DNA from: Malus domestica
Lineage: Eukaryota > Streptophyta > Magnoliopsida > Rosales > Rosaceae
Assembly (NCBI RefSeq): GCF_042453785.1
Contig: NC_091664.1
Span: 29,312,501-29,376,500 of the forward strand
Reading direction: 5' to 3'
DNA: 64,000 nt
The translations under genes were made by a program, and so were the position numbers. The first letter of the stretch is position 1; each line of letters opens with the position of its first letter. The notes under the pieces were generated by a model. It searched no databases. It was given only the letters and a program-made list of their open reading frames with translations, and was not told the DNA's origin. Positions 36,786-58,565 of this stretch are shown here, piece by piece.

Positions 36786-37012
36786 ACGGAGCTTCAGAAA
36801 TCGAAGAGGCATTTGCTTTCTCAAAAGCTGGGCTGCTCAGAGACCACGAGGGTCGATCTCAGAAATCGAAGAGGCGTTTGCTTTCTCAAAAGCTGGGCTG
36901 CTCAAAGACCATGAAGGCCGATCTCAGAAATCGAAGAGACGCTTGCTTTCTCAAAAGTTGGGCTGCTCAGAGACCACGATGGATGATCTTAGAAATCGAA
37001 GAGGCACCTACT
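36786..37012 (+). repeat. Tandem ~64-bp repeats in cargo of composite 1
   Basis: Four units each carry AGAAATCGAAGAGGC, TTTGCTTTCTCAAAAG(C/T)TGG and GCTGCTCAGAGACCACGA. The same unit appears in composite 2 (about 44930-45170 and 45600-45690). A related unit built on CAAAATCGAAGAGGCACCG and AATCTCGAGAGCCAGAC continues further along. Confidence 0.85.
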
Positions 37013-39164
37013 TTTCCAGCCTTGTCAGCACCTGTCACACGCACACTCAGCTTTGCGGAAATTATGAGCATTCTGTCGAAGACTTCTGGTGAAGAAGAAA
37101 GCACATGAGTCTTACTGTTCAATCACCCACTTCCCACACGCAATAGTAGCTCATGGGTACCATAGATAACTTTGCTAAAGTTCTCTGCCAAAGTTCGTGA
37201 AGCTTGCAGCTCCCACTACATCGCTCTGACCAAGAAGGGTAAAAGAATAGCAAAGAAACAGCACTCACAAAGTTTAGACACATAAATTTTGAAGGTATAG
37301 CTACCATATTATTACCCACAAGGGTAAAGGAACAGTACCACTGCTGGATAATTGGAAAGTCCCTGTGTGTCAACCTCTGTGCTTTGTGGCAAGGTAGACT
37401 AGCAAACATGCCCAACCTTTACTCACATTCGAGAAAACACTCCCAACAAGATTGCTTGCTCCAAAATCGAAGAGGCACCGTCCTCCGAATCTCGAGAGCC
37501 AGACTCCCAACATGACTACTTTCTCAAAAATCGAAGAGAGGGTAAAAGAACAGTACCATTGCTGGATAATTGGAAAGTCCCTGTGTGTCAACCTCTGTGC
37601 TTCGTGGCAAGGTAGACTAGCAAACATGCCCAACCTTTACTCACATTCGAGAAAACACTCCCAACAAGATTGCTTGCTCACAAATCGAAGAGGCACCGCT
37701 TTTCGAATCTCGAGAGCCGAATCTCCTTGGATAAAGCTGTCTGTAATATTCACACGCAACATCAGCTTTCCAGATACCACAGATCACTTTTTTCAAAGTG
37801 CTCTGACAGAGTTAAAACATGTGAAGCTGGCAGCTCTCACTACCGTGCTATGACCAAGTAGGGTAAAGGAATATCATTACTACTTGTTGTTAAGGAGACT
37901 CCTATATATGTCGACCTTCATCCCCAACGGACAGGCATACCTGCAAAAATGCTCAACCCTTCCTCATATCTGAGAGGGCACTCCCAACGAAGCATTTCGA
38001 AATATTCAGCTTTCTTTCCCCCCGATAATACCTTTGCAAACAAGCTATACTAGAGCAAGAATATCTCATATCATCAGGGTTAAAAGCAAGAGTATCCCAT
38101 ATCATGCTTTTTCCCTGTCTTTTCCTTTGGCATTGTTCTTACCTGCAAGACAAGGAGAAAGAGAGCAATCAGTCATCACTTGGAATCAAGCTTCCAGCCA
38201 GGAACTGACTGCCTGGAACCCCTTACCTGATTACTTACCTGACATTACTCTCGAGTACTCATCTTCAACATCTTATGCTTTCAGGGAAGATACTGCATCT
38301 GCCTGAGGAACAGATAGGGCAAGGGAGAAGGATACAAGGAAGCATGTAGAGACAAGCGTAACAGCACACGTGCCGATACATCCATTACTTTGTCAAAGTA
38401 AAAGTATCCCATATCAGTAGGGTCGAACGTACTCTAGATTTGATGGACTTGTTTTGACCCTCAAATTCTTCAATCGACCTTATACTCTGGAGGAAACCAG
38501 AAAACCCTCCAGCACAGTTCAAGAATAAGCCTGTGAAAAGTTACTTTTTCAAAAGCAAAAGTATCACATATCATCTCTTCTCATTTTCTTCTCTTTATCC
38601 TTCATGCTGCCTGCAAGATAGGGAGAATGTGAACAATCAGCCGGAGCTCTGATTGCTTACCTTGTCTGTCACCTCTTTCAGCAGATCCCCTAGCTCGGCA
38701 ACTTGGGGAACTCCTACTACATGGTTTGTATCGCGCTTGACCAAGCCTGAAACTACGAGTAAGCTTCAAGTGAAATTGATACATTACCTTGTGCATCTCC
38801 ACCAGTTAAAGATACCCCTGGATGGAGGAAGAGTAATTCCAGAGAAGATGCCACATGTACCTATGAGACAGATAAGGCAAGTCAAGACGATACCACACTC
38901 CGATACTTAGAAGTTTCGTGATTACGAGATCATTCTCCCACAATATTTCCTAATGTCATTTGTACTAAATCATTCACTTGTACTCACTAAAGGAGAGCTT
39001 GAACCTATGTACTTGTGTAAACCCTTCACAATTAATGAGAACTCCTCTATTCCGTGGACGTAGCCAATCTGGGTGAACCACGTACATCTTGTGTTTGTTT
39101 TCCTATCTTTATCCATTTATATACTTATCCACACTAATGACCGGAGCAATCTAGCGAAAATCAC

Positions 39165-39774
39165 AAAAAGCGACCGTTTTCGCTACCTAGGATCTATCGT
39201 GCAAGAGAACGGAGAATTAGATAGAGATCTCAACCATAGAATACAAGCTGGATGGATGAAGTGTAAGAGTGCATCCGGCGTGTTGTGTGACCGTCGTAGA
39301 CCATTGAAGCTCAAGGGAAAATTTTATAGGACGGCAATAAGGCCATCGATGTTGTATGGCACAGAATGTTGGGCGGTGAAACATCAACACGTACACAAAA
39401 TGGGTGTGGCGGAGATGAGGATGCTTCGTGGGATGTGTGGGCACATGAGAAAGGATAAGATTGAGAATGAGGATATCCGAGGTAAAGTAGGAGTAGCCGA
39501 AATTGAAGGAAAGATGAGAGAAAATCAGTTCCGGTGATTTGGACATGTGCAAAGAAGGCCTACTGACGCTCCGGTTCGAAGATGTGACTACGGGACAGAG
39601 GTTCAGGGCCGAAGGGGTAGATGAAGACCTAGGAAAACTTTGGAAGAGACTCTAAGAAAAGACTTAGAGTACTTGGATCTAATGGAGGACATGACACAAA
39701 ACCGAGCGCAATGGCGTTCTAGGATTCATATAGCCGACCCCACTTAGTGGGAAAAGGCTTTGTTGTTGTTGTTG
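39165..39774 (+). pseudogene. RTE-type LINE 3' tail of composite 1
   Basis: It encodes SDRFRYLGSIVQENGELD, FYRTAIRPSMLYGTECWAVK, MLRGMCGHMRKDKIENEDIR and related sequence, with a stop codon in frame after KMRENQFR. It runs to the LINE 3' end CACTTAGTGGGAAAAGGC(TTG)n. It overlaps in content with the fragment at 35024-35732, so the composite carries two partial copies of the same LINE region in direct orientation. It supplies the 3' end that RTE machinery would recognise. Confidence 0.85.
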
Positions 39775-40670
39775 TTTTCATAAAAGCACTTCAGTACCAA
39801 ATCAGTACTAAGAGACATGATATTGTTAAGCTAACAGTGAGAAATGTCAAATGACTCTTCATTAATATTGTGCTTAAGGGTAAATTTATGTCGTTTTTAA
39901 TGTAATTTAATCCACTCTAATACAAACTTTAGTCGTAAAAACAAACTCATCGGAAAAAAGTACAAGTATGAAGTTGCAAGAACATTATTTAAGGCGTTGT
40001 CTAGTTATTACGTTAAATATGGCGCTAGCCACTTATCTCGACCCGACATTGTCACCAAATTAAGATCACCTCAAAAGATTAACCAAATTGGATCTGCTAT
40101 TGTGAAAACTTTCATTGTTCATGGGAAATCTTGTGTTCATCTATTTGTTTTAGTATAGTTAATACTGATTTGATACTAAGGTGCTTTTATAAAAAGTGAG
40201 CATAAAAAAAAACTGAGCTTAAAAATATGTTTGGTAAACATTTAAAAAAAACTTATTTTCACAGTTTTAGGTAAAAAAAAAGCTGAAAATATGAAGCAGC
40301 AAAAATGAACTTACTATCACTGCACAGCACAAGCAAATTTTTCCAAAGCACAACAATACCAAAACCAACCCTAATAGAAGGTCGAAATGATGCTGCAGCA
40401 GCAGCACAAGAGCAATTATCTCTGCCCAAAAGTGTAAGAAACATGAAGGAAATTTGCAAATTGATGAAATTAAACACAAAAATTGACTACAATTCAAAGG
40501 GAGAATACCGAGTACTGAGGAGCAAGTTGCAACACACACAGCATTTGCAACATCTCTCTCTCACTTGTTTATTACATAACATTTATTCAAACTCAACAGA
40601 GAAAAATTACAGATAAAAGCTACAAGAACATCTTGATCGACAAGCCTGGAACGTAGCGAGTGGATAATGT

Positions 40671-41029
40671 TCACCAACGAGGGGGGCCACCGCCAGGGCC
40701 ACCTGGTCCGCCAGGGCCGCCGCCGAACACTGGTCCACAGCAGCTCTCAAACAAGCAGCAGCAGCACAAGATATAAGCACTGCAGTAGTAATACACGCCA
40801 AGATGATATTAGTTAGAAAAAACTTAAAAAACAATAATATAAACAGCTATATTACGGATAATACTTAGGTCCTGAGCAGTCAGACATACTGTAGTCGTAA
40901 ATGAACAATTTCTGCATTTTGCTAAACTCACCAAGATGAGATAAAGCTGCATATACCGCTGCAGAGGTCACCTAAGCAACCAAACCCTCCCGGACCTCCT
41001 CCTCCCGGCGGTCCCCATGGTGGTGGCAT
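40671..41029 (-). CDS. Small Gly/Pro-rich, Cys-core protein (paralogue A), 68 aa
   Basis: Two exons (41029-40932, 40779-40671) with a 152-bp GT-AG intron (TTG|GTGAGT ... CTGCAG|TGC) give 207 nt. The protein reads MPPPWGPPGGGGPGGFG, then GCLGDLCSGICSFISSC, then AYILCCCCLFESCCGPV, then FGGGPGGPGGPGGGPPRW. So it has a Gly/Pro head, a Cys-rich hydrophobic core with ten or more Cys, and a Gly/Pro tail. The phase-2 intron splits a Cys codon, exactly as in paralogues B and C. There is no signal peptide and no catalytic motif. The core could anchor at a membrane or bind metal, but that is inference. It is close to, but does not fit, the CYSTM type, whose Cys cluster is at the C-terminus. The gene lies between two mobile elements. 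Confidence 0.72.
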
Positions 41030-41151
41030 TCCTCTCTGATGGAGATGATGATCTGATCTCTCTCTCTCTCTCTTGATCAAAAAAGACCTATGGATATTTC
41101 TTCAGCTTCCTTCCTTGCTGAAATTGCAACGTAGCTATTGAAGTTGATCAG

Positions 41152-41162
41152 CTATATATACA
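41152..41162 (-). promoter_or_regulatory. TATA box of paralogue A
   Basis: TATATATAGC on the minus strand, about 125 bp upstream of the ATG at 41029, followed by CT-rich leader sequence. Position is the only support. Confidence 0.5.
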
Positions 41163-41501
41163 TAAAACTCTTGTATATCTAGATGTTTGTTGTTAATTAA
41201 GTGACACTTTTACAGAGAGAGAGAGAGAGAGAGAGAGCTTAGCGGCCAAGTATGGCATTCAATATCCTTTTCTATCTCGCTTTCTTCTTTAATTTGGTGG
41301 TTCCTGTTGTTTCATCTACTTCACGGGGAAGTAACAAACCTAACGTTCATGCATAAACCTAACATTCAAACCTTCCCTTTTGTGACCGACAAGATAAACA
41401 GAAGGTTTATCGTGGCATCATAGCTAGCTATTTCAATATTCAAAAAGTTCACACAACAATTTTTTTTTTTTTTCGTTTATGTATATATTTTTCAACTTCT
41501 T

Positions 41502-42493
41502 AGAGCACTTCCACAGTGGGAAACTCTCTTCAGGCTATTCGCTATTTAATCCACCTAATAAACAGTAATTTTTTTTTGTATCTCTACCGTTGCACTTAAA
41601 TAGCCCTAATAATAGACAATAAAATATTATTATTTTTTAAATAATTCAAAATAATTTTATTTGTAATTTCAGATAAGATTTTTAATCGGTTTCTTTGTAT
41701 CACTTTCTATTAAAAATTTTATTTTTATTATTTTTAATTTTTTCTTTTCACATGGTGCAAAATTTTTGTTATTTTCACATGGTGCCGATGCACCATTCCA
41801 AAATTTTTTTTATTATTATTATTTTTCTTCTTCTTTTCACATGGTGCCAACTCACCAAGCTGTGTTTTTTTTTTCTTTCTTTTTCAAACTCAACAGCTTT
41901 CTTTTTCAACCAGCACCCAGACTTTTAACCCGTGTCCCCCTCCCCCTCCCCCCAACGCACCCAAACCCTCCTCGCCTCATCGCACCCACCTCAGCCTCCA
42001 TCAATGGTCCCGATCATCCCCGCTCCCTAACCAAACTCTCTCTCTCTCTCCTCTTTCCCCCAAAAACAAATCCCAAATCGTGCGATCTTGGCGCGCCAAT
42101 GGAAGGAGGAAGATCGCGAGTGCGTGGGGGCGAAGGCGGTGTGGAGTGCGGCGGCAGCTGCGGCGGAGGAAGGACTAGATCTCTGCCATTTGTCTGTGGG
42201 TGTTCATCAACCTCGGCGACAAACTCCAGCGAGAGCCATTGGGTTCGAAGCCTGGGTTTTACAATTTTTTTTAATTTTTTTAATTTTACTTTTTTTATTA
42301 ATATTTTATATTTTTATTAATTAAATATTGTGGCTGACGTCAGCCCACGTCAAGTTGCCTTCGGGCTGGCAACGCTTGCTGGGCCTCTCCCTCGGGCTCC
42401 ATCGCCAGCACAAGTTAGGCTTGGTTGCTCGGGCTCTCTACCACTGTTCGCGGGCCTGTCCCTCGGGGGAAAGCACACGCTGCAAGTGCTCTT
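41502..42493. mobile_element. TIR element with GC-rich interior
   Basis: The left end TAGAGCACTTCCACAGTGGG and the right end GCAAGTGCTCTTA are inverted (consensus TAAGAGCACTT). The outer parts are AT-rich, but about 41930-42240 is unusually GC-rich, with long pyrimidine runs and GGCGGCAGCTGCGGCGGAGG-type sequence that looks unlike its neighbours. That may be a captured host-gene fragment (Pack-TIR type). No clean target duplication was seen. Confidence 0.5.
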
Positions 42494-42544
42494 AACACAG
42501 ATGTCTTGTACGTGGACAGACCATTTATTTTTTTTATATTATTG

Positions 42545-42600
42545 TAGTTTTTGAGAAAAAGTAACACTAGGAAAAAAGCTAGTTGGTAAGTTTTTTTTAT
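42545..42600 (+). repeat. ~50-bp block repeated at 48538-48590
   Basis: GTAACACTAGGAAAAAAGCT and its flanks (TAGTTTTTGAGAAAAA before, AGTTGGTAAGTTTTTT after) recur at 48538-48590 on the far side of the 42613-43670 element and composite 2. The two blocks look like a local tandem duplication whose second unit was split by both insertions. Confidence 0.6.
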
Positions 42601-42612
42601 ATATTGTGGTAG

Positions 42613-43670
42613 TTTTTATCACAAATGATTATTGAAATTGACCCATCCTATCAAGGTGGTCCTTGAAATTGAAAATTAATCAATGTAGTCTCTGAAAATG
42701 AGTGTGGCAAATTAATGTGGTCATTTCGTCATATTTCGGTTAAAAATTATGTTAAGTGCTGACATGACATTTAAATGGGTCTCACAAATTTATTAAAATA
42801 TTATTTTATGAAATAAAAAGATTTAAATATTAAAAAACAATTTTTAGTTTTTATAATTAAAAACTTGAAACATAAAAAATAAGAATAAGGAGATGATTGA
42901 ACACTGTTCATCATCTTCTTCCCCTCCCAACCTCCCACTACAGCCCCCACCCTACACCCCCATTCCCACTCTCTGGGTAGAGTGCCTCCGTCAGAACTGT
43001 GGTCGGGTTCCCGGGTCAGTTGAAAGATCTTTGGCGCACACATGGTGGCCATTGGATTTTCCCACCCTGTTCCTCCACCTTCGTGTGGCGAACCTTCGAC
43101 GGCCTCCTAGTCGGTTTCGTCATCATAGAAACGGGGACCGGAACAATCTCATGGACAAAGTTCAAGAATCTCAGGAAATTTTCAAGAACCTAGAAATCTA
43201 ACCCATTTTCTTCACAAAAAATCTAACTCAAAAATCTGCCGGAACGGAACCAATAATCTCATAAAATGTTAAGAACCCAGATGAAAAACACTAAATCAAG
43301 CTAAAAACAAGGAAATTTCAAGAAATTAACAACAAGAAATGTCAAGAATTTAAAACATAAAAACTTTAAAAAAATTTATCCTCACGGGAAGAAGATGATG
43401 AACAGTGTTCAATTATCTTCTTTTTTTATTATTATTTAAATATATATTTTTTATATTTAAATATTTTTAATTAACAAAATAATATTTTATTAAATTTGTG
43501 AGACCCATTTAAGTGCCACGTCGGCACTTAACATAATTTTTAACAGAATTGTGAAGAAATGATCACATTGATTTGCGACACTCATTTTCAGGAATTACAT
43601 TGATTGATTTTCAATTTCAGAGACTACTTTGATGAGATGAGTCAATTTCAGGAACCATTTGTGACAAAAA
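42613..43670. mobile_element. Long-TIR (≈310 bp) non-autonomous transposon, MULE-like
   Basis: The termini TTTTTATCACAAATG and its inverse CATTTGTGACAAAAA begin inverted repeats that can be followed for about 310 bp on each side (to about 42926 and from about 43386), through GAAATTGACCCATC, AACACTGTTCATCATCTTC and others. The 460-bp core contains a stretch of higher complexity (42960-43200) that could be a captured gene fragment. No transposase. Long TIRs suggest a Mutator-like or foldback element. Confidence 0.75.
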
Positions 43671-44116
43671 CTTTTTATTTTTATTTTTATATATTGTTGT
43701 AGTTAGGTTCAGGGCCGAAGGGGTAGAGGAAGACCTAGGAAAACTTTGGAAGAGACTCTAAGAAAAGACTTAGAGTACTTGGATCTAACGAAGGACATGA
43801 CACAGGATCGAGCACAATGGCGTTCTAAGATTCATATAGCCGATCCCACTCAGTGACTTGGATTTTCCAAGTCTCCAACCGAGAAGTTTTCCTCACTCGG
43901 GAAATTAAGGGAACACTACCCCAACCTACATGCTCCACTCAGAAAGCTTCAACTTACAAGCTTCAACAAAAGAAAATTCAAAGAACTTAGCGAAGAAGGC
44001 TTTGGTGTATTTAACACAATACGTTGAAATGAAGGAAAGCTTATTTATTGATATCCCCGATAAGCTACAAATATCTACATATACATGAGTCAAAATAAAC
44101 ACACAAGAGGGAGCCT

Positions 44117-44791
44117 TCACAAAGGTTGCTTAGGAGAAGTCTCAGCAGTCGGTAGAGCCCCAGAAAGAGAAGGCACCGGAGGGGGATCATTTGGAGCCTC
44201 AGTACTGGACAGAACCCTAGAAGGAGGAGGCATCAGAGGTTGATCATTTGGAGCTTCATTACGCGGTACAGCCCCAGAAGACGAAGGCAATAAATGCCTT
44301 TGGAACAAACCCACAAATCTCTGATGATCAAGTAAAACCTGACCATCAGTTTCCTTCATCTGGTCAAGCTTCCTCTTCATGTTTGTAGCATAGTCATGTG
44401 CGAGCCGGTGCAACTGTTTATTCTCATGCTTGAGCCCCCTAATCTCCTGTTTGAGACTCATCACTTCAGCCGCCAATGATTCAACTTGGCGGGTTCGAGC
44501 AAATAGGCGTTGGGCCATATTAGACACAGAACCTGCACACTGAACACTGAGAGCCAGCGAATCCTTAACAGCTAACTCATCAGACCGTTTGGAAAATAGT
44601 CTGTTATCTTTGGGAGTGAGAAGGTTCCTGGCCACCACCGCAGCGGTCATATCATTCTTCATCATGGAATCCCCAACGGTAAGAGGACCAGTAGGGGAGA
44701 CGAAGGATGGGCGCCATATGTTGTCTGGAGAAGGCGGGGCTGCCTCTTCAACAAGGTTCAAGTCAAAACGACGGTCGGAGGGGCCAGACAT
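44117..44791 (-). CDS. Open frame in retroposon cargo, copy 2: 224-aa coiled-coil protein
   Basis: It is co-linear with the frame at 35980-36654, the same length, beginning MSGPSDRRFDLNLVEEAAPP, with the same coiled coil and the same four C-terminal Glu-Ala-Pro-Asn-Asp repeats. Differences from copy 1 are scattered substitutions, for example KETDGQVLL against KEFDGQVLL. No function is recognised. Retention of two full-length frames is a hint of either recent copying or coding constraint; distinguishing these needs a substitution-pattern test. Confidence 0.55.
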   Translation of the reverse strand: MSGPSDRRFDLNLVEEAAPPSPDNIWRPSFVSPTGPLTVGDSMMKNDMTAAVVARNLLTPKDNRLFSKRSDELAVKDSLALSVQCAGSVSNMAQRLFARTRQVESLAAEVMSLKQEIRGLKHENKQLHRLAHDYATNMKRKLDQMKETDGQVLLDHQRFVGLFQRHLLPSSSGAVPRNEAPNDQPLMPPPSRVLSSTEAPNDPPPVPSLSGALPTAETSPKQPL

Positions 44792-44929
44792 TTTCAAAGG
44801 TGTTGAAGAGAGAAGAGGTCGGACAAATCAAGATCTTAGAAGTGCAAGAATGAAGCTTCTACTGGTGGAGATTCAAGTGTGCTTTGGAACTTAATGCCAG
44901 CCCCTATAAAAATCTGCACTCGACGGAGC

Positions 44930-46530
44930 TTCAGAAATCGAAGAGGCGCCTGCTCAGAAATCGAAGAGGCGTTTGCTTTCTCAAAAGCTGGGCTGCTTAG
45001 AGATCACGAGGGTTGATCTCAGAAATCGAAGAGGCGTTTGCTTTCTCAAAAGTTGGGCTGCTCAAAGACCACGAAGGCCGATCTCAGAAATCGAAGAGGC
45101 GCTCGCTTTCTCAAAAGCTGGGCTCCCCAGAGACCACGAGGGCCGATCTCAGAAATCGAAGAGGCACCTACTTTTTCAGCCTTGTCAGCACCTGTCACAC
45201 GCACACTCAGCTTTGCGGAAATTATGGGCATTCTGTCAAAGACTTCTGGGGAAGTAGAAAACACATGAATCTTACTGTTCAATCACCCACTTCCCACACG
45301 CAACAATAGCTCATGGGTACCACAGATAACTTTGCCAAAGTTCTCTGCCAAAGTTGAGCACGTGAAGCTTGCAGCTCCCACTACATCGCTCTGACCAAGA
45401 AGGGTAAAAGAATAGCAATTTTAACACTCCCAACAAGATTGCTTGCTCCAAAATCGAAGAGGCACCGCCTTCCGAATCTCGAGAGCCAGACTCCCAACAT
45501 GATTACTTTCTCAAAAATCGAAGAGACACTGCTCCTCGAATCTCGAGAGCCAGACCCCCAGCATGATTACTTTCTCAAAAATCGATGAGGCATCGTTCTC
45601 CGAATCAATCGAAGAGGCGCTCGCTTTCTCAAAAGCTGGGCTGCTCAGAGACCACGAGGGCCGATCTCAGAAATCGAAGAGGCACCTACTTTTCTAGCCT
45701 TGTCAGCACCTGTCACACGCACACTCAGCTTTGCAGAAATTATGGGCATTCTGTCAAAGACTTCTGGTGAAGTAGAAAGCACATGAATCTTACTGTTCAA
45801 TCACCCACTTCCCACACGCAACAATAGCTCATGGGTACCACAGATAACTTTGCCAAAGTTCTCTGCCAAAGTTGAGCACGTGAAGCTTGCAGCTCCCACT
45901 ACATTGCTCTGACCAAGAAAGGTAAAAGAATAGCAAAGAAACAACACTAACAAAGTTTAGACACATAAATTTTGAAGGTCTAGCTACCATATTATTACCC
46001 ACAAGGGTAAAGGAACAGTACCACTGCTGGATAATTGAAAAGTCCCTGTGTGTCAACCTCTGTGCTTCGTGGCAAGGTAGACTAGCAAACATGCCCAACC
46101 TTTACTCACATTCGAGAAAACACTCCCAACAAGATTGCTTGCTCCAAAATCGAAGAGGCACCGTCCTCCGAATCTCGAGAGCCAGACTCCCAACATGACT
46201 ACTTTCTCAAAATCGAAGAGAGGGTAAAGGAACAGTACCATTGCTGGATAATTGGAAAGTCCCTGTGTGTCAACCTTTGTGCTTCGTGGCAAGGTAGACT
46301 AGCAAACATGCCCAACCTTTACTCACATTCGAGACAACACTCCCAACAAGATTGCTTGCTCCAAAATCGAAGAGGCACCGCCCCCCGAATCTCGAGAGCC
46401 AGACTCCCAACATGATTACTTCCTAAAAAATCGAAGAGACACTGCTCTCCGAATCTCGAGAGTCAGACCCCCAGCATGATTGCTTTCTCAAAAATCGAAG
46501 AGGCATCGTTCTCCGAATCTCGAGAGCCAG
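44930..46530 (+). repeat. Expanded tandem repeat arrays in cargo of composite 2
   Basis: Units of about 64 bp with AGAAATCGAAGAGGC and CTCAAAAGCTGGGCTGC alternate with units carrying AAAATCGAAGAGGCACCG and CCGAATCTCGAGAGCCAGAC. Two larger blocks containing CTTGTCAGCACCTGTCACAC also repeat (about 45180 and 45700), as do two with CTGGATAATTG (about 46025 and 46240). This accounts for most of the extra length over copy 1. Confidence 0.8.
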
Positions 46531-47930
46531 ATACCACAGACCACTTTTTCAAAGTGCTCTGACAGAGTTAAAACATGTGAAACTGGCAGCTCCCACTACC
46601 GTGCTATGACCAAGCAGGGTAAAGGAATAACATTACTACTTGTTGTTAGGGAGACTCCTATATATGTCGACCTCCATCCCCAACGGACAGGCAGACCTGC
46701 AAAAATGCTCAACCCTTCATCATATCTGAGAGGGCACTCCCAACGAAGCCTTTCGAAATATTCAGCTTTCTTTCCCCCCGATAATACCTCTGCAAACAAG
46801 CTATACTAGAGCAAGAATATCTCATATCATCAGGGTTAAAAGCAAGAGTATCCCATATCATGCTTTTTCCCTGTCTTTTCTTTTGGCCTTGTTTTTACCT
46901 GCAAGACAAGGAGAAAGAGAGCAATCAGTCAGCACTTGGAATCAAGCTTCCAGCCAGGAACTGACTGCCTGGAACCCCTTACCTGATTACTTACCTGGCA
47001 TTGCTCTCGAGTACTCATCTTCAACATCTTATGTTTCCAGGGAAGATTCCGCATCTGCTTGAGGAACAGATAGGGCAAGTGCGAAGGATACAAGGAAGCA
47101 TGTGGAGACAAGCGTAACAGCACACGTGCCGATACATCCATTACTCTGTCAAAAGCAAAAGTATCCCATATCAGCAGGGTGGAACGTACTCTAGATTTGA
47201 TGGACTTGTTTTGACCCTCAAATTCTTCAGTCGGCCTTATACTCTGGAGGAAACCAGAAAACCCTCCAGCTCAGTTCAAGAATAAGCCTGTGGAAAGTTA
47301 CTTCTTCAAAAGCAAAAGTATCTCATATCATCTCTTCTCATTTTTCTTCTCTTTATCCTTCATGCTGCTGCAAGATGGGGAGAAGGTGAACAATCAGTCG
47401 GAGCTCTGATTGCTTACCTTGTGTGTCACCTCTTTCAGCAGACCCCCTAGCTCGGCGACTTGGGGGACTCCTACTACATGGTTTGTATCGCGCTTGACCA
47501 AGCCTGAAACTACAAGTAAGCTTCAAGTGAAATTGATACATTACCTTGTGCATCTCCACCAGTTAAAGATACCACCCCTGGATGGAGGAAGAGTACTTCC
47601 AGAGAAGATGCCACATCTACCTATGAGACGGATAAGGCAAGTCAAGACGACACCACACTCCGATACTTAGAAGTTTCATGATTACGAGATCATTCTCCCA
47701 CAATATTTCCTAATGTCATTTGTACTAAATCATTCACTTGTACTCACTAAAGGAGAGCTTGAACCTATGTACTTGTGTAAACCCTTCACAATTAATGAGA
47801 ACTCTTCTATTCCGTGGACGTAGCCAATCTGGGTGAACCACGTACATCTTGTGTTTGCTTTCCTATCTCTATCCATTTATATACTTATCCACACTAATGA
47901 TCGGAGCAATCTAGCGAAGATCACAAAAAG

Positions 47931-48536
47931 CGACCGTTTTCGCTACCTAGGATCTATCTTGCAAGAGAACAAAGAATTAGATGGAGATCTCAACCATAGA
48001 ATACGAGCTGGATGGAAAGAGTGCATCCGGCGTGTTGTGTGACCGTCGTAGGCCACTGAAGCTCAAGGGAAAATTTTATAGGACGGCAATAAGGCCAGCG
48101 ATGTTGTATGGCACAGAATGTTGGGTGGTGAAGCATCAACACGTACACAAAATGGGTGTAGCGGAGATGAGGATGCTTCGTGGGATGTGTGGGCACACGA
48201 GAAAGGATAAGATTGGGAATGAGGATATCCGAGGTAAAGTAGGAGTAGCCGAAATTGTAGGAAAGATGAGAGAAAATCGGCTCCGGTGATTTGGACATGT
48301 GCAAAGAAGGCCGACTGACGCTCCGGTTCGAAGATGTGACTACGGGACAGAGGTTCAGGGCCGAAGGGGTAGAGGAAGACCTAGGAAAACTTTGGAAGAG
48401 ACTCTAAGAAAAGACTTAGAGTACTTGGATCTAACGGAGGACATGACACAAAACCGAGCGCAATGGCGTTCTAGGATTCATATAGCCGACCCCACTTAGT
48501 GGGAAAAGGCTTTGTTGTTGTTGTTGTTGTTGTTGT
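47931..48536 (+). pseudogene. RTE-type LINE 3' tail of composite 2
   Basis: It contains SDRFRYLGSILQENKELDGD, FYRTAIRPAMLYGTECW, GRGRPRKTLEETLRKDL and the 3' terminal CACTTAGTGGGAAAAGGC(TTG)n. Relative to the copy-1 tail it has a small frame-changing deletion near 48016 and the same stop after KMRENRLR. It is non-functional on its own. Confidence 0.85.
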
Positions 48537-48732
48537 TGTAGTTTTTAAGAAAAAGTAACACTAGGTAAAAAGCTAGTTGGTAAGTTTTTTCAGTTGGTGG
48601 TGTTACGATACGCACACCGTCGTTAATTAAGCATGACACATATTTGAAAGAAAACAAAAGATCAATAGGGTACGCGATTTAGACTTAATAAATAGTATTA
48701 ATCTATGTACATAGCGTATGCATTATATTTTA

Positions 48733-48880
48733 GGGGTGTGCTATCCATACATCCCAAATTACTTCTTACATACTCTTTGTTAATTTATGTCCGTTGATCT
48801 TCTTCCATTCATCCGATCCGACGGTCGAAAATTAAAAAAATATGTGAGAAGTAAAATGAGTTGTGTGGATATCACGCCCC
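48733..48880. mobile_element. hAT-like MITE, relative of the SOD-intron copy
   Basis: The ends GGGGTGTGCTATCCATACA and GTGGATATCACGCCCC and the interior CCGTTGATCTTCTTC / ATCCGATCCGACGG match 5035-5182. The flanks share TATATTT. The following 48881-49720 shows no gene or repeat I can support. Confidence 0.7.
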
Positions 48881-50089
48881 TATATTTCACTGTTTGAGGT
48901 GGATTGAATATTATTCTGCTGTCATAATGTCTATATGTTCTGTTATGTAGAACTCATCTTTATGCTTTTACATTGATGGCATTCTCTAGGATTTACACTG
49001 TTTTGCTGCTTTTGTGGATCTATAAGGATCGAGATCGAATCATTTTAATTCCTAGCGTTCAAATAGTAGTTTAAAATATGTAATATAACATGATTAACAT
49101 CTGTTTGGATAAGGCTTTCCTTCTTTTCAGGTTGAAAAATATGCTTAATTCAAAAGGGAAGAAACATGGTGAATCTGACGTGAAAATAAGGAAACAAAAC
49201 AAACAATCGTGGTTGGATAAGTGTGATGTAAATTTGATGACGGAGTGGATCGAAAATCAAACATGAAAGGCAAAAATCTAGTAGCAAAATCTAAGCATGC
49301 AAATTTGAGCTCCGATGTCCAATTTGGGCGCATGACTCGTTGTTTTGAAGAGAATGGTGTCGTGAGTTCAACCTATTGCGTTGTTGTGAATATGGGCTTT
49401 TTTGGTCAAATTCTTTCGATTACTATGTTTTATTAGCACTTGAAAATTTTATGATATTTTGTTATTTTCATACCTCGTTTCATATTTGTATTCCTCAAAA
49501 CTCTGGTGTAAATGGTATTATAAGTATCCTAGGGAGCTGAGGTTTGATATATTCATATTATTCATTAGACTTTGACGTTTTTTCGTATTCTCTATGTGGC
49601 TTTCATTTCTTATGTATTAAGATTATCGTTTGATATATTTTCTTTGTCACGTTTGAGTCTTAGTGCTACGTTTTCAAACACTTACACATTTTATATGTAC
49701 GAGTTTATTTCATGCAAAAATGAAACAAAAGTAAATAGCAAATTATAAATTTAAATAAATTTAAAACTCAGTACTGTCTCAGGATTACAACTCAGTAATG
49801 ACTGGAATTACACAGACTTGTTCTTCTTGACCCCAGAAAAAAGGTGGTCGCCTATGGTTCGATCTCAATTTAACGGTAGCTGATCATTTAATTTTTTTTA
49901 CTGTACTTTCTTCTTCAATATTAAATTAAACTCAAACAGTAAATGATCATCAATTATTTGGACTCGGAATTTAGTCGGAATTACAACTCTATTTCTAATT
50001 CAAAGATATTGTACACGTTCCTGCTACTACTGTATATGCTGCGTATGCAACACAACAGATTTCTGGAAACTCAAGCCTGCTTGATGATC

Positions 50090-50532
50090 TCATGGAGGTG
50101 GTGGTCCAGGCGGGCCAGCTGGACCGGGGGGGCCAGGTGGGCCAAAGGGAGCAGGAGGCCCTGGTGCAGGTGGGCCAAAGGGTGCGGGAGGCCCTGGTGC
50201 AGGTGGGCCAAAGGGTGCGGGAGGCCCTGGTGCAGGTGGCCCAAAGGGTGCTGGAGGCCCTAGTGGTGGCCCACCAAAGCAGTCTTGCAATAACCAGCAG
50301 CAACACAGAAAACTCACACTGCCAAACTCCCATAAACAAAATGGTCATTTAGAGAGAGGGAATGAGACGAGTTAAGATGTAGATTTACATACATATATAC
50401 GTACCATGCACCAATGAAATCACAAAAGCCACCGAAGAGAGGATGCGGACCAGGCGGTCCGGGAGGTCCTCCGAAACCAGGCGGTCCGGGAGGCGGTCCA
50501 GGAGGTCCTCCGGGACCTCCACCAGGTCTCAT
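50090..50532 (-). CDS. Small Gly/Pro-rich, Cys-core protein (paralogue B), 118 aa, expanded tail
   Basis: Two exons (50532-50405, 50318-50090) with an 86-bp intron (CATG|GTACGT ... GGCAG|TGTG) total 357 nt. The head is MRPGGGPGGPPGPPPGPPGF followed by GGPPGPPGPHPLFGG. The core is FCDFIGAC / VSFLCCCWLLQDCFGG. The tail is a long Pro-rich run of 11-residue repeats of the form APFGPPAPGPP, ending GPPGPPPP. The phase-2 intron again splits a core Cys codon. The upstream leader and promoter match paralogue C almost base for base, so B and C arose by a recent segmental duplication. A TATA-like run sits about 195 bp upstream of the ATG (50725-50734). The function is unknown. Confidence 0.75.
50136..50267 (-). 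repeat. Coding minisatellite, four 33-bp units in paralogue B
   Basis: Units start at 50136, 50169, 50202 and 50235 (GGTGGGCCAAAGGGTGCGGG and variants), each encoding 11 residues of the Pro/Gly tail. Paralogue C lacks the array and A has only a short Gly/Pro tail. The period is a multiple of three, so copy-number change keeps the frame. Confidence 0.9.
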
Positions 50533-51246
50533 TGGTAGCTAAGCTACGTACTCACTAGGCCTATACGTACGACCACCTTCTTCAACAAAACGAAGCCTGC
50601 AGAGAATAAGGTTTTATGCATGGCAGTGCAGTGCAGGGAACAACTTGTACAAGTTCTTAAGGTTGATGATAGCTAGGGTTTATAGGAAGATAGAATTAAC
50701 TAGACTATACGAGAAGCAACTACTGTATATATTGCGTTTGACCATATCCTCCAGTCCAGTTTTAAACTTTTTCTTTTTTCATCCAACATTTTTCTCCTGC
50801 CATTCTTCCCACCTACCATTCACAACTAAAACTGCAGGTTCATGTATCAAATGACACGATTTCCATTCATACTTTTGTATTTTCCTATTGAGATCGGATT
50901 TTTTTTGGTATTTACCAGTGTATAGTAGATCCGGCAGTTTCTAACACGATACGAAAATAACAAGTTTAAGATCAACACGATAACTAATCGGGTCATTATC
51001 GGGTGATCCGTTATGAACCCTTTAATAACGGGTTCTTAACATGTATACACGTGGGTAATCCGTTTCGACCTATTAAGAAAAAAATTATTTTGATAATTTT
51101 AAAGTTTAATTACTAAAAGGTTTATTATAAAATTGTTGACCCTAAAAACTATTAAGCCTAGTAGCACGCAGACCGAGTAATTAGTAAGCTAACTACGTCC
51201 TTTGGTTGTATGCGGGCATGCCAATTCGTCGACCTAGCTCGGCTGA

Positions 51247-52251
51247 GGAGTAAAATATGTTGATGTTGCGTTGGGTGCGTTGCTAACTTCTGAATCTCGT
51301 GACTGCGGCCGAGGAAGGTATACGTCTCGGCCTTCAGGTTCTAGAACCTGAAGACAAGGTTGCTAATTTTGCTAAGTTCAATATCAAATTCAGCTTTCAA
51401 TGTGCCAAATGTAGTAACTTGTAACACCTCACTTTGCCGAGTAGGCTAATGAGATGACATCTGCCAATGAGGATTCGAGAATCCTTCTCGACTGAAACTT
51501 GGATAGATAACCAATCGGCCCTGTTGCAGTGCTATTTATCCAAACTGAAGGTGCCTCACGGTCGGCTGATTCTACGGCAACAATGCTATTTATCCAAACT
51601 GAAGATGTTCGCTGGTTGCCTTCATAGTGCTGTTTATCCAAACTGAAGATGTGTTGGCGAAAAAGGAAAAATAAAAATCTCAAGATTGTTGAGAGGGTTT
51701 GCGCAAGACAGTTTGTGTGTTGAGTTGAAGGTTCTCTCTGATAGTTGCCGCTGCCTCTATTTATAGATTTTGTAATGCTCAGCCAGTATTCCAGTTTCAT
51801 TCTAACTCTCAGCGTTAGGATATTGTAATAAAGAACCTTCTTGATAATATCCCTCAAAGTCAAGATGCCTTGGGTCAATGCCGTGCTCCTTTCATCTTTG
51901 CAGAACACCAATCTAACCCACAGATTGGTTATAATATTTAAATGTCGTGGATCACTGTCATCCAAATTCCCATGCACCATTATCTGCTCCAATTTGCATC
52001 ATTATCTTGACTTCAACTTTATCCTAAAACCATGCATCCTGACTATTCAAACCTCATCCTAATGCACCATGCTGCTTAATCTGATAATATGAGTCCTAAG
52101 TCCATTTGAATTGTACTGCTCGCTCGGAAATATGCTTTGCATCTTCTTTCAATAATAACAAAATTATCTTCATTTTTCATCCGATGACTGGGAGTTATGC
52201 TCATTCAACGGCCTCGATCGCACGAGCCGATGATGTAAATTTAGGTCCAAA
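51247..52251. mobile_element. Possible LTR remnant inside the hAT element
   Basis: The stretch is compositionally different from the AT-rich hAT interior, begins TGTTGATGTTGCG and ends GGTCCAAACA. It includes three ~60-bp units with TATTTATCCAAACTGAAG. A partial repeat of its end (GCCGATATTGTAAAATTAGG) lies at about 52350. I could not confirm target duplications, so the call is weak. A 187-codon minus frame across it (51429-51992) has no recognisable domain. Confidence 0.3.
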
Positions 52252-52755
52252 CAATTTCATAAGATAATTACTTCGAAAATTCAATAGTAATATCTAGAAA
52301 AATATGAAATCCAACAGTTTAGAAACCACTTATTTAATGGTCTTGATTGCCCGGGCCGATATTGTAAAATTAGGTCCAAACAAAAGTACAATAGCCATAT
52401 TAATGTATACAATATATTATATATTAAATATATAATTTTGTATTATTATTCTATATAAGTTAAAAAAAAAGTTTTAATCATTATTTATTTTTATTATGAG
52501 AGTTTCTTATTATCATTACTAGGATAAATTTTACTTAACATATTGTTGTCCAAAATTAAAATAAACTAGTATAGTATTTGTATAGGCAAGAACTAAGAAG
52601 ACATACATACAAGTATGAAAAATATGAAAGAATATATAAACACTCGTCATTCATTAGTATTCCTTTACGAGTAGATAATGGTTACACTTACATTATCGTT
52701 TAGATTTTTAAAATCCTCCAAACCCTCATGAATAATATTTTTTATTTGAGGGCAA

Positions 52756-53373
52756 AATTAATTATTGTAGAACTGTAATAATTGTAAAAAAAAAAAAAAT
52801 ACAATCACTCATAGTGATAAGCCTTACAACTTTCATGAAGGGGTCAGCTTCGAAATCCAACACTATAATCCATAAACCTTAATTTTATATTTAAACGTCG
52901 ATTGTCATTTACGTTTTAGTCTTCTTACTAAATTTCATTTTAAAAATTTTCTTTTTTGAAAACATCATCATCTGGCGGATGTAAGAAGATGAACAGTTCA
53001 GATCCTTGATATCAAATTTCGATATTTATGATTAAATGAAATGTGAGTCGATGTCATATAGTTTGTAGAAACTTTATAAACATCAAGCAATATTTTCACT
53101 AACCATAAAACTTTGAATATAATATCAATGATCCAAACCATTCATCTTCTTGCATCCTCTAATAGATCATGTTTTCAAAAAATAAAATCTGAAAAGAAAA
53201 AAAAAATTTGATGAGAACAATGAAGCGTAAATGTAAACAACAATCAACGGTTAAATTTTGATGTATGATTTATATGATTATAGTGGCGAATTTCGAAGTT
53301 AAGCTCGTCGTGAAAGTTATAAAGCTTGTCATTACGAGTGTTTATATATATATTTTTTACAATTCTACATTAA
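52756..53373. mobile_element. Foldback MITE with ~290-bp inverted arms
   Basis: The left arm (TTGTAGAACTGTAATAATTG, AAGCCTTACAACTTTCATGA, GATGTAAGAAGATGAACAG) and the right arm are inverted copies with moderate divergence over nearly the full length, so the element is almost one long hairpin. It lies within the hAT-type element, making it a nested, later insertion. Confidence 0.7.
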
Positions 53374-53711
53374 TTTAAAAACTATTAAAGACTTTACTCA
53401 AATACGTTTTTATTTTTTGGATGTGACAATATGGTATGTATATACTTATTTAGTATTATGTTTTTCATTTGATTATTTATTGGTTTAAAATATATTTTCC
53501 TTAATGGGTAACATGTCGGGTCATATTACCTGTTAATATTATCGGGTCAATTCGGGTAGGATCATTTTATCCGTTTATTTTAACAGGTGTTACACGACAC
53601 GACCCGTTAAGATATCGGGTATGACACGAGAACGACACAAACACGAAAAATACGACACGAATGCCAGGTCTAGTGTATAGTATAGTATATACAATTAAAA
53701 GTGTACGTTTG

Positions 53712-53713
<2 letters not shown>

Positions 53714-53784
<71 letters not shown>
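53714..53784. repeat. (AT)n microsatellite, ~71 bp
   Basis: Uninterrupted AT dinucleotides immediately follow the right target duplication of the hAT element. A second, shorter AT run is at about 53906-53926. Confidence 0.95.
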
Positions 53785-53786
<2 letters not shown>

Positions 53787-54058
53787 ATTCATGATATGAT
53801 TTCCATTCAAACTTTTGCATTTTTTTGTTGAGATTGAACAACTGAGATTTTTCAATATGCACTGGTATATAATATTATACATAGAATTTTGGTTGTTAAC
53901 TCTTGAATATATATATATATATATATCAATTCATGATATGATTTCCATTCAAACTTTTGCATTTTCTTGTTGAGATTGAACAACTGAGATTTTTCAGTAT
54001 GCACTGGTGTATAATATTATACATAAAATTTTGATTGTTAACCCTTGAATTAATTATT
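53784..54058. repeat. 142-bp tandem duplication
   Basis: Units starting at 53784 and 53926 share TCAATTCATGATATGATTTC, ACTTTTGCATTTT, GAACAACTGAGATTTTTCA and TATAATATTATACATA. Diverged relatives occur downstream of paralogue C's promoter region (about 55860-56110). Confidence 0.85.
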
Positions 54059-54112
54059 GTATCATTGGTCCCATCCCATCAAACGCTTTATTCATTTGTT
54101 GTATACCATACA

Positions 54113-54232
54113 CGAAAGCATAGTAAAAGTTTGGACGAGGGATATGAATTAGTGTAACTTTATCACAATGGTGAAAAGCATAGTAAAAGTTTGGACGAGG
54201 GATATGAATTAGTGTAACTTTATCACAATGGT
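54113..54232. repeat. Exact 60-bp tandem duplication
   Basis: 54113-54172 and 54173-54232 are identical: each begins AAAGCATAGTAAAAGTTTGG and ends TTTATCACAATGGTG. Identity implies a very recent duplication or an assembly artefact. Confidence 0.9.
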
Positions 54233-54714
54233 GAAGGACCACCAGCGTGCGCAGTGCATGTTTAGGATTTTCAAAAAGCTACTTTTATCACATTTTTCAT
54301 ACGTATCACATTTCTAACAAAGATAAAACTTATATGTATTGGTGGTCCAAATCACATTTCTAACAAAGATAAGACTCATATGTATTGGTGGCCCCGCATG
54401 CAACTTTTTATAAAGAGTCGTTGGCAGGACACTGTTTTACGTATAACGGTGTAATGTTACACAAACAACATATGTCGGTACCAAATGACAGTAATGACTC
54501 GCAAACAAGGAGAAAGAAATAAAATAAGATTTAGAAGAGTAGAGAAGAATTGAGATTAATTTCTCTGGCTTTTACCCCATTTATACCAAAACGTTTTTCT
54601 TGAATTGTAAGACCTTTACAGCACTGTGAAAATGACACGAAAATATAACTCACAACTGTTTAGATGGATCGAGTATTTTGATTCGATAGTTTAAATTTTA
54701 TATTCGATTTGATT

Positions 54715-55860
54715 TCTTGCTAAAATGAAACAAAAATAAATAGATAATTATAATTCAGTGATGACTGGAATTACAGACTTATTCTAGACCCGAGGATCCA
54801 AAGAAATGGTGGTCACTTACCATTCGATCTCAATCAAATGGTACGTGGTCATTTAATCCTCCAACATTAAATTAAACCGAACAATGAATGATCACAACTT
54901 ATATGGACTATGGAGTTTAGCACAACAGGACTCGTAATTACAAGTCTCTTTCTAATCCAAATTTATTGTACATAAATTGCTACAAATATATGCGATACAA
55001 CTGATTTCTGGAAACTCAAGCCTGCTTGATGATCTCATGGAGGTGGCGGCGGTCCAGGAGGCCCTGGTGGCCCACCAAAGCAGTCTTGCAATAACCAGCA
55101 GCAGCACAGAAAACTCAAACTGCAAAACTCCCATAAACAAAATGGTCATTTCTTCAACATTTTAGAACATTTTATTTCACATTTTCGTATATGGCATGCG
55201 CATGGCTTGAGTGAGAGGGAGAGAAACGAGTTAAGATGTAGATTTACGTACAAAAATAATATCACAAAATTTACAAATTGGTAACAAAAACAAATCAAAA
55301 GATGTAGATTTACATACATATATACGTACCATGAACCAATACAATCACAAAGGCCACAGCAGATAGGAGGCGGACCAGGAGGGCCGCCGAAACCTGGCGG
55401 TCCGGGAGGTCCGGGAGGTCCTGGAGGAGGTGGAGGTCCCCCGGGTCCCATTGGTAGCTAAGCTACGTACTCACTCTTAGCCTATACGTACGACCACCAC
55501 CTTCAACAAAACGAAGCCTGCAGAGAATAAGGTTTAGGGAATGGCAGTGCAGTGCAGGGAACAACTTGTACAAGTTTTAAAGGTTGATGATACCTGGGTT
55601 TATAGGAAGATAGAATTAACTAGACTAAACCAGAAGCAACCGCTTAACTGTATATATATCCAGTTTTAAACTTTGTACTTAATTCTTTTTTCTTCCAACA
55701 CTTTTCACCTGCCATTCTTCCCACCTACCATTCACAACTAAAACTGCACGTTCATATATCAAATGACACAAATTCCCATTCTTTTCATCCAACACCTTTC
55801 ACCTGCCATTCTTCCCACCTACCAACTAAAACTGCAGGTTCATATATCAAATGACACGAT
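54715..55860. repeat. Segmental duplicate of 49725-50870 (carries paralogue C)
   Basis: The downstream flank (ATGACTGGAATTACA, GGTGGTC), the gene body, the leader (CCTATACGTACGACCACC, AACGAAGCCTGCAGAGAATA) and the promoter/upstream block (CTGCCATTCTTCCCACCTAC) are collinear in both copies. The hAT element sits between the two copies. Confidence 0.8.
55035..55451 (-). CDS. Small Gly/Pro-rich, Cys-core protein (paralogue C), 68 aa
   Basis: Two exons (55451-55330, 55119-55035) with a 210-bp intron (CATG|GTACGT ... TTGCAG|TTTG) total 207 nt. The head is MGPGGPPPPPGPPGPPGPPG, the core ICCGLCDCIGSC / LSFLCCCWLLQDCFGG, the tail PPGPPGPPPPP. The core is nearly the same as B (SFLCCCWLLQDCFGG is identical), and the intron is at the same codon and phase. 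The tail has no 11-residue array. A TATATATAT box lies about 200 bp upstream (55650-55659). No family recognised. An open frame conserved in three copies with fixed exon structure argues for a real gene. Confidence 0.75.
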
Positions 55861-56353: not shown

Positions 56354-58565
56354 ATATACAAACTATATTTTTCAGTGTGATCGGTACATAGAATAGTATA
56401 CTATGTGTTACTATACAAATGATGAGATATGTGTGCTAAAAAGTTAATAACTTAAAAAATAAAATTTTCCATCATTTCTATTAAAATATGTGGTGTACCA
56501 CTTATGTTTCCGTTACAATTAGAAATTTCTCCATATATACGTAGCTACCAAATGACAGTGATGACTTGCAAACAAGGAGAAACAAACAAAATAAGGAATA
56601 GAAGAGAAGGGAAGAGAATGGAAGAGAGAAGAAGTATATAATATATAATGAAGATTATCTCTGTCTTTTTTCTTTTTCTTTTTTTGGAAACTAGATTATC
56701 TCTGTCTTTTACCCTATCAGACCAAACACGTTTTTACTTGAATTATAAGAAATTTGCAACACTCTATAAAATGACACGAAAATATACCTCACAACTGTTT
56801 TGACTTTTTTTATTTATATTTAAAAAAAAAAAATTAATCTCAATCATGTTTAGATATTCTATTATCAATGATCAATCTTAATCATTTATTTAGATCTTTT
56901 TTTTAATCCAATTATTTATTTTCGTACCATTCAATTCTACATGGTATTGAAGAAATTTTTCACAATTTCTATCAGTTTTGCAAATGTTTAAAAAACTATC
57001 ATATAACCCATCTCTTTGTCGTTTTTTTTTTTTCCAATTTCCCCCCTTAAATATTTAATTATAAAAAGAAAAAAAAATACTTCTACATATCAATAAAATG
57101 CAAAACTGCTTTCAAAATAGTTTTTAACATATTTCTTAATGCCTACAGAAAAAATTTCGCGAAATCACAAAAATCGCACTTTTCCGCAATAAAAATGTGG
57201 ACTAACATTCGTGGTTTTCAATCACAAAATTATTGTTGTGACATTTTCGCATGTGAACAATGATTGGCAGGGGTTTCAAGGTAGGAAACAACATTGATGA
57301 TATGCACATGAAAGTTTTGGTTTGAGCTCCAAACAAGCCAATGTTAAACGGCAACTGCCAAGTGTGGTTTATGTTCTAATCTGCCGAACCTTTTTTCTCT
57401 TTCCGTTTTCTGATTAGTGCTATACAATGAAATTTCAGTTTTGAAATCCTAATTTCCATGGCAATACAATACAACATAACAACGACGTATATACAAACTA
57501 CATACATACTGAGAGATTTTTCAGTGTGACCAGTACACGGAGTGGTACAACACGTGTTACTATACAAATGATGAGATATGTGTGCTAAAAAGTTAATAAC
57601 TTAAAAAATAAAATCTCACCACTTCTATTAAAACACGTGATGTACCACTTATATTCCCGTCCCAATTAAAATTTTCTTCATATATACGTCCCTACCAAAT
57701 GACAGTGATGACTTGCAAACAAGCAAAAACAAATAAAATAAGGCATAGAAGAGAATGGAATAGAAGAGAATGGAAGAGAGTAGAAGTATATAATATATAA
57801 TGAAGATTATCTCTGTCTTATACCCCCATTATACCAAACACGTTTTTACTTGAATTATAAGAAATTTGCAACACTCTGAAAATGACACGAAAATATACCT
57901 CACAACTGTTTAGACTTTTTTTATTTATGTTTTTTTAAAATTTTTTTTAATCTCAGTCATCTGTTTAGATATTCTATTATCAATCTCAATCATTTATTTA
58001 TTTATTTTTAATCCAATTATTTATTTTCGTATCATTCAATTCTACGTAGTATTGAAGAAATTTTTCACAATTTCTATCAGTTTTGCAAATGTTTAAAAAA
58101 GTCGTTTTTTTTTATTTTACAATTTCCAAATATTTAATTATAAAAAGAAAAAAAAATATACTTCTACATATCAATAAAATGCAAAACTGCTTTCAAAATA
58201 GTTTTTAACATATTTCTTAATGCCTACAGAAAAAATTTCGCGAAATCACAAAAATCGCACTTTTCCGCAATAAAAATGTGGACCAACATTCGTGGTTTTT
58301 AATCACAAAATTATTTTTGTGCATTTTCGCATGTGAACAATGATTGGTAGGGTTTTCAAGGTAGGAAACAACATTGATGATATGCACATGAAAGTTTTGG
58401 TTTGAGCTCCAAACAAGCCAATGTTAAATGGCAACTGCCGAGTGTGGTTTAAGTTCCAACCTGCCGAACCTTTTTTCTCTTTCCGTTTTCTGATTAGTGC
58501 TATACAATGAAGTTTCAGTTTTGAACTCCTAATTTCCATGGCAATACAATACAACATAACAGTGT
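56354..58565. repeat. ~1.1-kb tandem duplication in the 3' flank of HASTY
   Basis: Unit 1 (about 56354-57487) and unit 2 (about 57488-58565) align over most of their length: GCAAAACTGCTTTCAAAATA, CGCGAAATCACAAAAATCGC, GCACATGAAAGTTTTGG and CATGGCAATACAATACAACA occur in both. Each unit begins with the same ~165-bp MITE (near 56366 and 57515). The second unit ends about 175 bp beyond the HASTY stop codon, so it may include HASTY 3'-UTR sequence. Confidence 0.85.
57515..57682 (+). mobile_element. MITE, relative of the copy at the NHX stop codon
   Basis: GTGGTACAACACGTGTT at the left and AACACGTGATGTACCAC at the right are inverted repeats, with ATGTGTGCTAAAAAGTTAAT inside. A second copy is at about 56366-56535 through the tandem duplication, and a reversed one at 14209-14347. 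Confidence 0.7.

What the first reader, a model, noticed from the sequence alone, without database searches (positions are those of the whole stretch)
40671..55451. Three-member tandem family of tiny Gly/Pro - Cys-core - Gly/Pro proteins
Seen: three minus-strand genes (40671-41029, 50090-50532, 55035-55451), each with two exons, a phase-2 intron splitting a core Cys codon, a collagen-like Gly/Pro head, a core with an LCCC(C/W)L motif, and a Gly/Pro tail. The frames and splice sites are kept in all three, and the intron lies at the same codon, although A is strongly diverged from B and C. Inference: real genes under constraint, possibly membrane-anchored or metal-binding. I know of no named family with this layout.
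Basis: partly seen in the sequence, partly recalled or inferred. Interest (0 to 1): 0.78.

Follow-up and report, generated by a model that had tools for sequence, protein, structure and literature searches.

The report
Gly/Pro-flanked divergent CYSTM membrane proteins
Three small plant genes encode what look like offshoots of a known family of cysteine-rich membrane-anchored stress proteins (CYSTM), unusual because the putative membrane anchor sits between two glycine/proline-rich stretches instead of at the end of the protein.

Summary
The three two-exon gene models stand at the stated coordinates: GT-AG introns, phase 2, each splitting a Cys codon TG|T. They are not an isolated unnamed family. 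The genome (G000, 651 Mb, 19 contigs) holds at least three more members of the same layout: a counterpart of A on C12 and a pair on C3/C11. The core aligns with the CYSTM module. Four WIND HOSE-like CYSTM genes of this genome have a phase-2 intron in the same Cys codon (MEG-C|LAALCCCCLLDACF). Profile comparison gives E = 1.5e-8, and 0 of 150 column shuffles that keep LCCC reach the score. Membership is not formal: 0 of 6 reach Pfam's CYSTM cut-off, the core is not C-terminal, and the head is Gly/Pro-rich, without GYPPQ repeats. In B and C other in-frame splice joins exist, so their junction rests on agreement with the relatives. Constraint is visible between lineages, weak within recent pairs. 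Function is inferred: a membrane-anchored thiol cluster. No RNA or protein evidence was available. New variant of a known kind.

The parts
40932..41029 (-). gene A exon 1 (Gly/Pro head and start of core)
40780..40931 (-). gene A intron, phase 2, splits Cys codon TG|T
   Evidence: only in-frame join in the scan
40671..40779 (-). gene A exon 2 (AYILCCCCLFESCC core, Gly/Pro tail)
50405..50532 (-). gene B exon 1
50319..50404 (-). gene B intron, phase 2, splits Cys codon TG|T
   Evidence: one of six in-frame joins in the scan
50090..50318 (-). gene B exon 2 (VSFLCCCWLLQDCF core and long Gly/Pro/Ala tail)
50101..50265 (-). 33-nt tandem repeats in the tail of B
   Evidence: family D15
55330..55451 (-). 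gene C exon 1
55120..55329 (-). gene C intron, phase 2, splits Cys codon TG|T
   Evidence: one of six in-frame joins in the scan
55035..55119 (-). gene C exon 2 (LSFLCCCWLLQDCF core and short Gly/Pro tail)

Best explanation
A, B and C are protein-coding genes of a divergent subfamily derived from WIND HOSE-type CYSTM genes. Shown from sequence: same core spacing (C-x3-L-CCC-x-L-[LF]-x2-C in the six), same intron in the same Cys codon and phase, and a core at least as hydrophobic as two canonical CYSTM cores. Inferred: the core inserts as one membrane helix, or is held at the membrane by its Cys cluster, at the plasma membrane; it pairs with itself or partners through the Cys-rich face; the clustered thiols act in membrane redox or metal/stress tolerance. 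Inferred: the nearly uncharged Gly/Pro head and tail are flexible, fast-changing spacers, and the tail makes the protein bitopic rather than strictly tail-anchored.
For: Intron: six of six members and four WIH-type CYSTM genes split this Cys codon in phase 2. The script looked for that form of junction; the freer scan found it the only in-frame join in A, M12, M3, M11, W10 and W5b (6 of 10 genes) and the best-scoring one of two and of five in W5a and W2. Three of the four WIH-type genes (last two coding exons only) exceed Pfam's CYSTM cut-off. Profile: hhalign against the four WIH-type cores E = 1.5e-8, score 35.2; 0 of 150 full shuffles (max 17.6) and 0 of 150 LCCC-keeping shuffles (max 23.7); each lineage alone E 2.1e-8, 8e-8 and 2.6e-6. 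Against five PCM-type sequences read exactly from the genome: E = 8.7e-6, score 30.2, 0 of 150 LCCC-keeping shuffles (max 23.5). Hydropathy: best 19-residue Kyte-Doolittle mean 1.79-2.07 in the six, 1.54-1.61 in two canonical CYSTM ends. Constraint between lineages. In the three close pairs all 19 exon gaps are multiples of three, against 3 of 13 intron gaps (hypergeometric 4e-6 by hand; codon-sized repeats inflate this). Literature: the CYSTM end anchors PCC1 to the plasma membrane and dimerises it (PMC3903633, passages); a run of 3-4 Cys and a following acidic residue mark the family (PMC10217909, passages).
Against: 0 of 6 full proteins reach PF12734's cut-off of 25.2 bits: B 7.7, M11 7.0, none listed for A, C, M12, M3; best core 14.6 bits (B). 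A profile of the five PCM-type genes gives the spliced cores only -10.8 to 7.7 bits for the stated join, against 23.8-35.8 for the WIH-type genes; in B and C that profile prefers other in-frame joins (stated join fifth of six in B, second of six in C). Core not C-terminal; head lacks YPPQ repeats. Weak selection within pairs: A/M12 omega 0.42 (P 0.18), B/C 0.38 (P 0.40), M3/M11 0.30 (P 0.03), from 945, 1461 and 1102 stop-free simulations of 2000. Biopython's YN00 gave dN/dS 1.48 for B/C and 0.92 for M3/M11 and failed for A/M12. Exons are hardly more alike than introns: exon 1/intron/exon 2 are 0.83/0.86/0.87 (A/M12), 0.83/0.94/0.95 (B/C), 0.92/0.88/0.88 (M3/M11). In the three distant pairs, left out of the gap count, nucleotide-aligned exon gaps are often not multiples of three. 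No expression, localisation or functional data.
Confidence: 0.8

Rival explanations
1. An unrelated plant family of Gly/Pro-rich proteins that converged on a Cys-rich membrane segment.
For: 0 of 6 reach Pfam's cut-off; low scores on a PCM-type profile; different head; Gly/Pro tail; Cys-biased cores can match by composition.
Against: Same Cys codon and phase as in four WIH-type CYSTM genes; a random intron in A's 207-nt reading frame would hit that point about once in 200 (inference). Shuffles that keep LCCC never reach the profile score.
Confidence: 0.12
2. Secreted or cell-wall structural Gly/Pro-rich proteins, collagen-like, with the Cys core as a cross-linking knot rather than a membrane anchor.
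For: Gly plus Pro make up 49-70% of the six proteins; weak Collagen match in C (E 0.59).
Against: The heads start directly in Gly/Pro sequence, with no N-terminal hydrophobic stretch visible to the eye; the most hydrophobic segment is the core. No signal-peptide predictor was run.
Confidence: 0.1
3. Decaying pseudogene copies whose frames survive by chance.
For: Weak selection signal in recent pairs; exon and intron identity similar.
Against: Six of six frames and splice sites intact; third-position excess between lineages.
Confidence: 0.05

Closest known systems
WIND HOSE (WIH1/WIH2)-type CYSTM proteins (type named from memory and from mentions in PMC10030403)
   Same: Core spacing and the phase-2 intron in the same Cys codon; low-complexity Pro-rich head; small size
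   Different: Three of four here end at LLDACF, the fourth at MLDCLWGGM, and they carry GYPPQ repeats; the six genes have Gly/Pro heads and 13 or more residues after the core's last Cys
PCM/CYSTM (PCC1-like) proteins
   Same: Cys run with flanking Cys, acidic residue and final Cys-Phe
   Different: Core lies in one open frame in 5 of 5 read; different head; four of five end at ACF, the fifth (L003) reads on for 13 residues without Gly/Pro repeats
CDT1 cadmium-tolerance peptides
   Same: Small Cys-cluster proteins; CDT1 is named as a CYSTM member in PMC3903633 (passages)
   Different: 49-60 residues with Cys near the C-terminus (PMC7283499, passages); sequences not compared here

Membership tests
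CYSTM (PF12734) | Profile score above Pfam's gathering cut-off (25.2 bits) | tested here: not met
   0 of 6 full proteins; 3 of 6 cores match at E 10 or less, best 14.6 bits, E 0.037. One WIH-type gene with a changed end also fails (7.6 bits, and not over its core).
CYSTM (PF12734) | 3-4 consecutive Cys within a hydrophobic helix holding 5-6 Cys | tested here: met
   LCCC in 6 of 6, best hydrophobic segment there in 6 of 6; definition from passages of PMC10217909. Helix itself not predicted; Cys number in the core varies.
CYSTM (PF12734) | Acidic residue after the Cys run | tested here: met
   E or D at the first or second place after the L-[LF] pair in 6 of 6
CYSTM (PF12734) | Module at the extreme C-terminus (tail-anchored) | tested here: not met
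   Core followed by a Gly/Pro tail in 6 of 6
CYSTM (PF12734) | N-terminal cytoplasmic element with predicted beta-strand and variable linker | not tested
   Heads are Gly/Pro-rich; no secondary-structure prediction was run
WIH-type CYSTM genes | Phase-2 intron in the Cys codon five residues before the Cys run (feature seen here, not a published definition) | tested here: met
   6 of 6 members and 4 WIH-type genes; forced in A, M12, M3, M11 but one of six possible in-frame joins in B and in C
WIH-type CYSTM genes | Tyr/Pro/Gln (GYPPQ) repeats in the head | tested here: not met
   Absent in 6 of 6 by reading
CYSTM (PF12734) | Plasma-membrane localisation | not testable with these tools
   needs a localisation experiment

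The most novel reading that the evidence does not exclude
A CYSTM-derived subfamily has moved its membrane module from the very C-terminus to the middle of the protein, so that a nearly uncharged collagen-like Gly/Pro tail is carried across the plasma membrane and shown to the cell wall, turning an inward-facing tail-anchored stress protein into one that links cytosol and wall.
Probability: 0.25. Interest if true: 0.5.

Novelty: new variant of a known kind. Interest (0 to 1): 0.33.

Why it matters
CYSTM proteins matter in plant stress and disease (a two-residue deletion in the membrane segment of pepper Bs5 gives bacterial-spot resistance; PMC10030403, passages). Six genes here escape the Pfam model, so counts of CYSTM genes in plant genomes that rely on it may miss a subfamily; the split-Cys intron offers a marker that does not depend on composition. 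If the tail does cross the membrane, the tail-anchored picture of the family needs an exception.

Tried and rejected
Pfam on six full proteins and NCBIfam on A, B and C: nothing significant. Literature search for five strings of core letters: 0 papers. Searches for CYSTM with plant, intron/gene structure, Malus, glycine-rich/proline-rich/tail-anchored, WINDHOSE, genome-wide identification, and one for CDT1: I saw the listings (2 to 20 rows each) and passages of PMC10030403, PMC8049917, PMC10217909, PMC7283499 and PMC3903633, no whole paper. I saw no description of a CYSTM with a Gly/Pro tail, but the defining paper (Venancio and Aravind 2010) is not held, so this proves no absence. B/C counterpart on C12: in the 39.3 kb held, the B core matched only the M12 core and chance-like pieces; the listing for the C core was cut short. 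Weak PF12734 hits L027 and L028 do not read as family members, and L026 showed no CCC-containing frame ending in a stop. In one search some pS values exceed 1 (21 codons only, an artefact of path counting); I read them only as saturated. The PCM-type rows typed for and used had one wrong letter in the head of L001 and were cut at ACF in L003; there E = 2.7e-6, score 30.6, 0 of 150 in each of three shuffles (maxima 21.9, 30.1, 28.6). One search repeats the comparison with exact rows. No structure prediction was run: the spliced proteins do not occur letter for letter in the DNA. No homologues outside this genome were sought: the collections on hand are prokaryotic, viral or plasmid, and metagenome scans were capped at 0.

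Full report
Observation. The three genes are as described. Splicing gives A (68 aa), B (118 aa) and C (68 aa), each with a GT-AG phase-2 intron that splits a Cys codon TG|T.

Family. Searching the window's own genome (G000, 651,096,769 bases, 19 contigs; window = C4:29312501-29376500) with exon-2 peptides found three more genes: C12:29521130 (here M12, counterpart of A), C3:36178730 (M3) and C11:39713268 (M11). Window 17.5-41.4 kb is largely collinear with C12. All six have intact frames, phase-2 introns and a split Cys (TG|T in A, B, C, M12; TG|C in M3, M11). The pairing C4/C12 and C3/C11 and the size recall apple; that name is recalled, not tested. Searches of this genome score only the best candidates, so six is a lower bound.

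Relation to CYSTM. Pfam's CYSTM model matches only below its cut-off: full proteins B 7.7 and M11 7.0 bits, none listed for the other four; best core 14.6 bits (B). Two kinds of CYSTM gene were found in the same genome. PCM-like genes (5 read, L001-L005) hold the core in one open frame; four end at ACF and one, L003, reads on for 13 residues (a sixth, L006, has a degraded Cys run). WIH-like genes on C5 (two), C10 and C2, found with a generic query, have a phase-2 intron that splits the Cys before LAALCCCC: TG|T, TG|T, TG|C, TG|T for W5a, W10, W5b, W2. This is the same Cys and the same phase as in A, B and C. Three of these four (last two coding exons) exceed the Pfam cut-off; the fourth, which ends LCCCCMLDCLWGGM, does not, so failing the model does not exclude descent.

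Is the junction forced? The script sought the TG|Y form. The freer scan listed every in-frame GT-AG join near the core: the TG|Y join is the only one in A, M12, M3, M11, W10 and W5b, the best-scoring in W5a (of two) and W2 (of five). In B and C six joins each are possible, and a PCM-type profile does not favour the stated one (fifth and second of six). For B and C the junction therefore rests on agreement with the other eight genes.

Profile controls. hhalign of the six cores with the four WIH-type cores gave probability 95.5, E = 1.5e-8, score 35.2, with split Cys aligned to split Cys; 0 of 150 full column shuffles (max 17.6) and 0 of 150 shuffles keeping LCCC (max 23.7) reached it; each lineage alone also matched. 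Against five exact PCM-type rows: E = 8.7e-6, score 30.2, 0 of 150 LCCC-keeping shuffles (max 23.5); an earlier run with hand-typed rows gave 30.6 with shuffle maxima up to 30.1. Single spliced cores score poorly on a PCM-type HMM (-10.8 to 7.7 bits), so the link is seen by profile and intron, not by single-sequence scores.

Selection. Between lineages the 21-codon core shows 9-16 third-, 6-9 first- and 2-6 second-position differences in 12 comparisons, dN 0.22-0.41, dS saturated in 11 and 1.6 in one (no test of significance). Within pairs the signal is weak: omega 0.42, 0.38 and 0.30 with P 0.18, 0.40 and 0.03 against simulated neutral change. Whole-frame NG86 ratios are lower (0.22, 0.14, 0.06 values) but depend on alignment of repeats, and YN00 disagreed. 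Exon gaps in the three close pairs are multiples of three in 19 of 19, intron gaps in 3 of 13; the three distant pairs were left out of this count because their nucleotide alignments are unreliable, and many of their exon gaps are not multiples of three.

Mechanism. The core is the most hydrophobic stretch (best 19-residue mean 1.79-2.07; two canonical CYSTM ends 1.54-1.61) and is flanked by nearly uncharged Gly/Pro sequence. Published work shows the CYSTM end of PCC1 is needed for plasma-membrane anchoring and self-association, and mentions proposed redox and metal roles (PMC3903633, passages). I infer the same for this core. What the Gly/Pro tail does is open; its length differs between copies (repeats in B; A against M12), which argues for a spacer.

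Classification. A variant: related to CYSTM by intron and profile, not a formal member because the Pfam threshold and the C-terminal position are not met.

Noticed in passing
window 35153-39776 and 43705-48528: Two copies of a repetitive element, about 94% alike, with 0.58-kb direct end repeats on the first (35153-35732 / 39158-39749, 90%), on either side of gene A; no match over 150 nt to the held C12 stretch is listed between 35022 and 40147, so the first looks like a retroelement-type insertion.
   Followed up: partly
G000:C5:20816069 (L037/L046): A WIH-type CYSTM gene with a long YPP-repeat head and an altered end (LCCCCMLDCLWGGM) whose core falls below Pfam's cut-off.
   Followed up: partly
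G000:C9:11251995 (L003): A PCM-like CYSTM gene whose frame reads on for 13 residues (no Gly/Pro repeats) past the usual end at ACF.
   Followed up: no
G000:C6:18987476 (L006): A PCM-like CYSTM copy whose Cys run has degraded (ALYCCYGYLLLSS), possibly a decaying gene.
   Followed up: no
window 59746-61057 (-) and 7020-8069 (+): Neighbouring conserved genes: exportin-5 family pieces and a Frigida-like protein.
   Followed up: no
window 42611-42846 / 43437-43672: 236-nt inverted repeat, 85% complementary, 590 nt apart.
   Followed up: no
window 56356-58561: A 1.1-kb tandem duplication, 85% alike overall.
   Followed up: no
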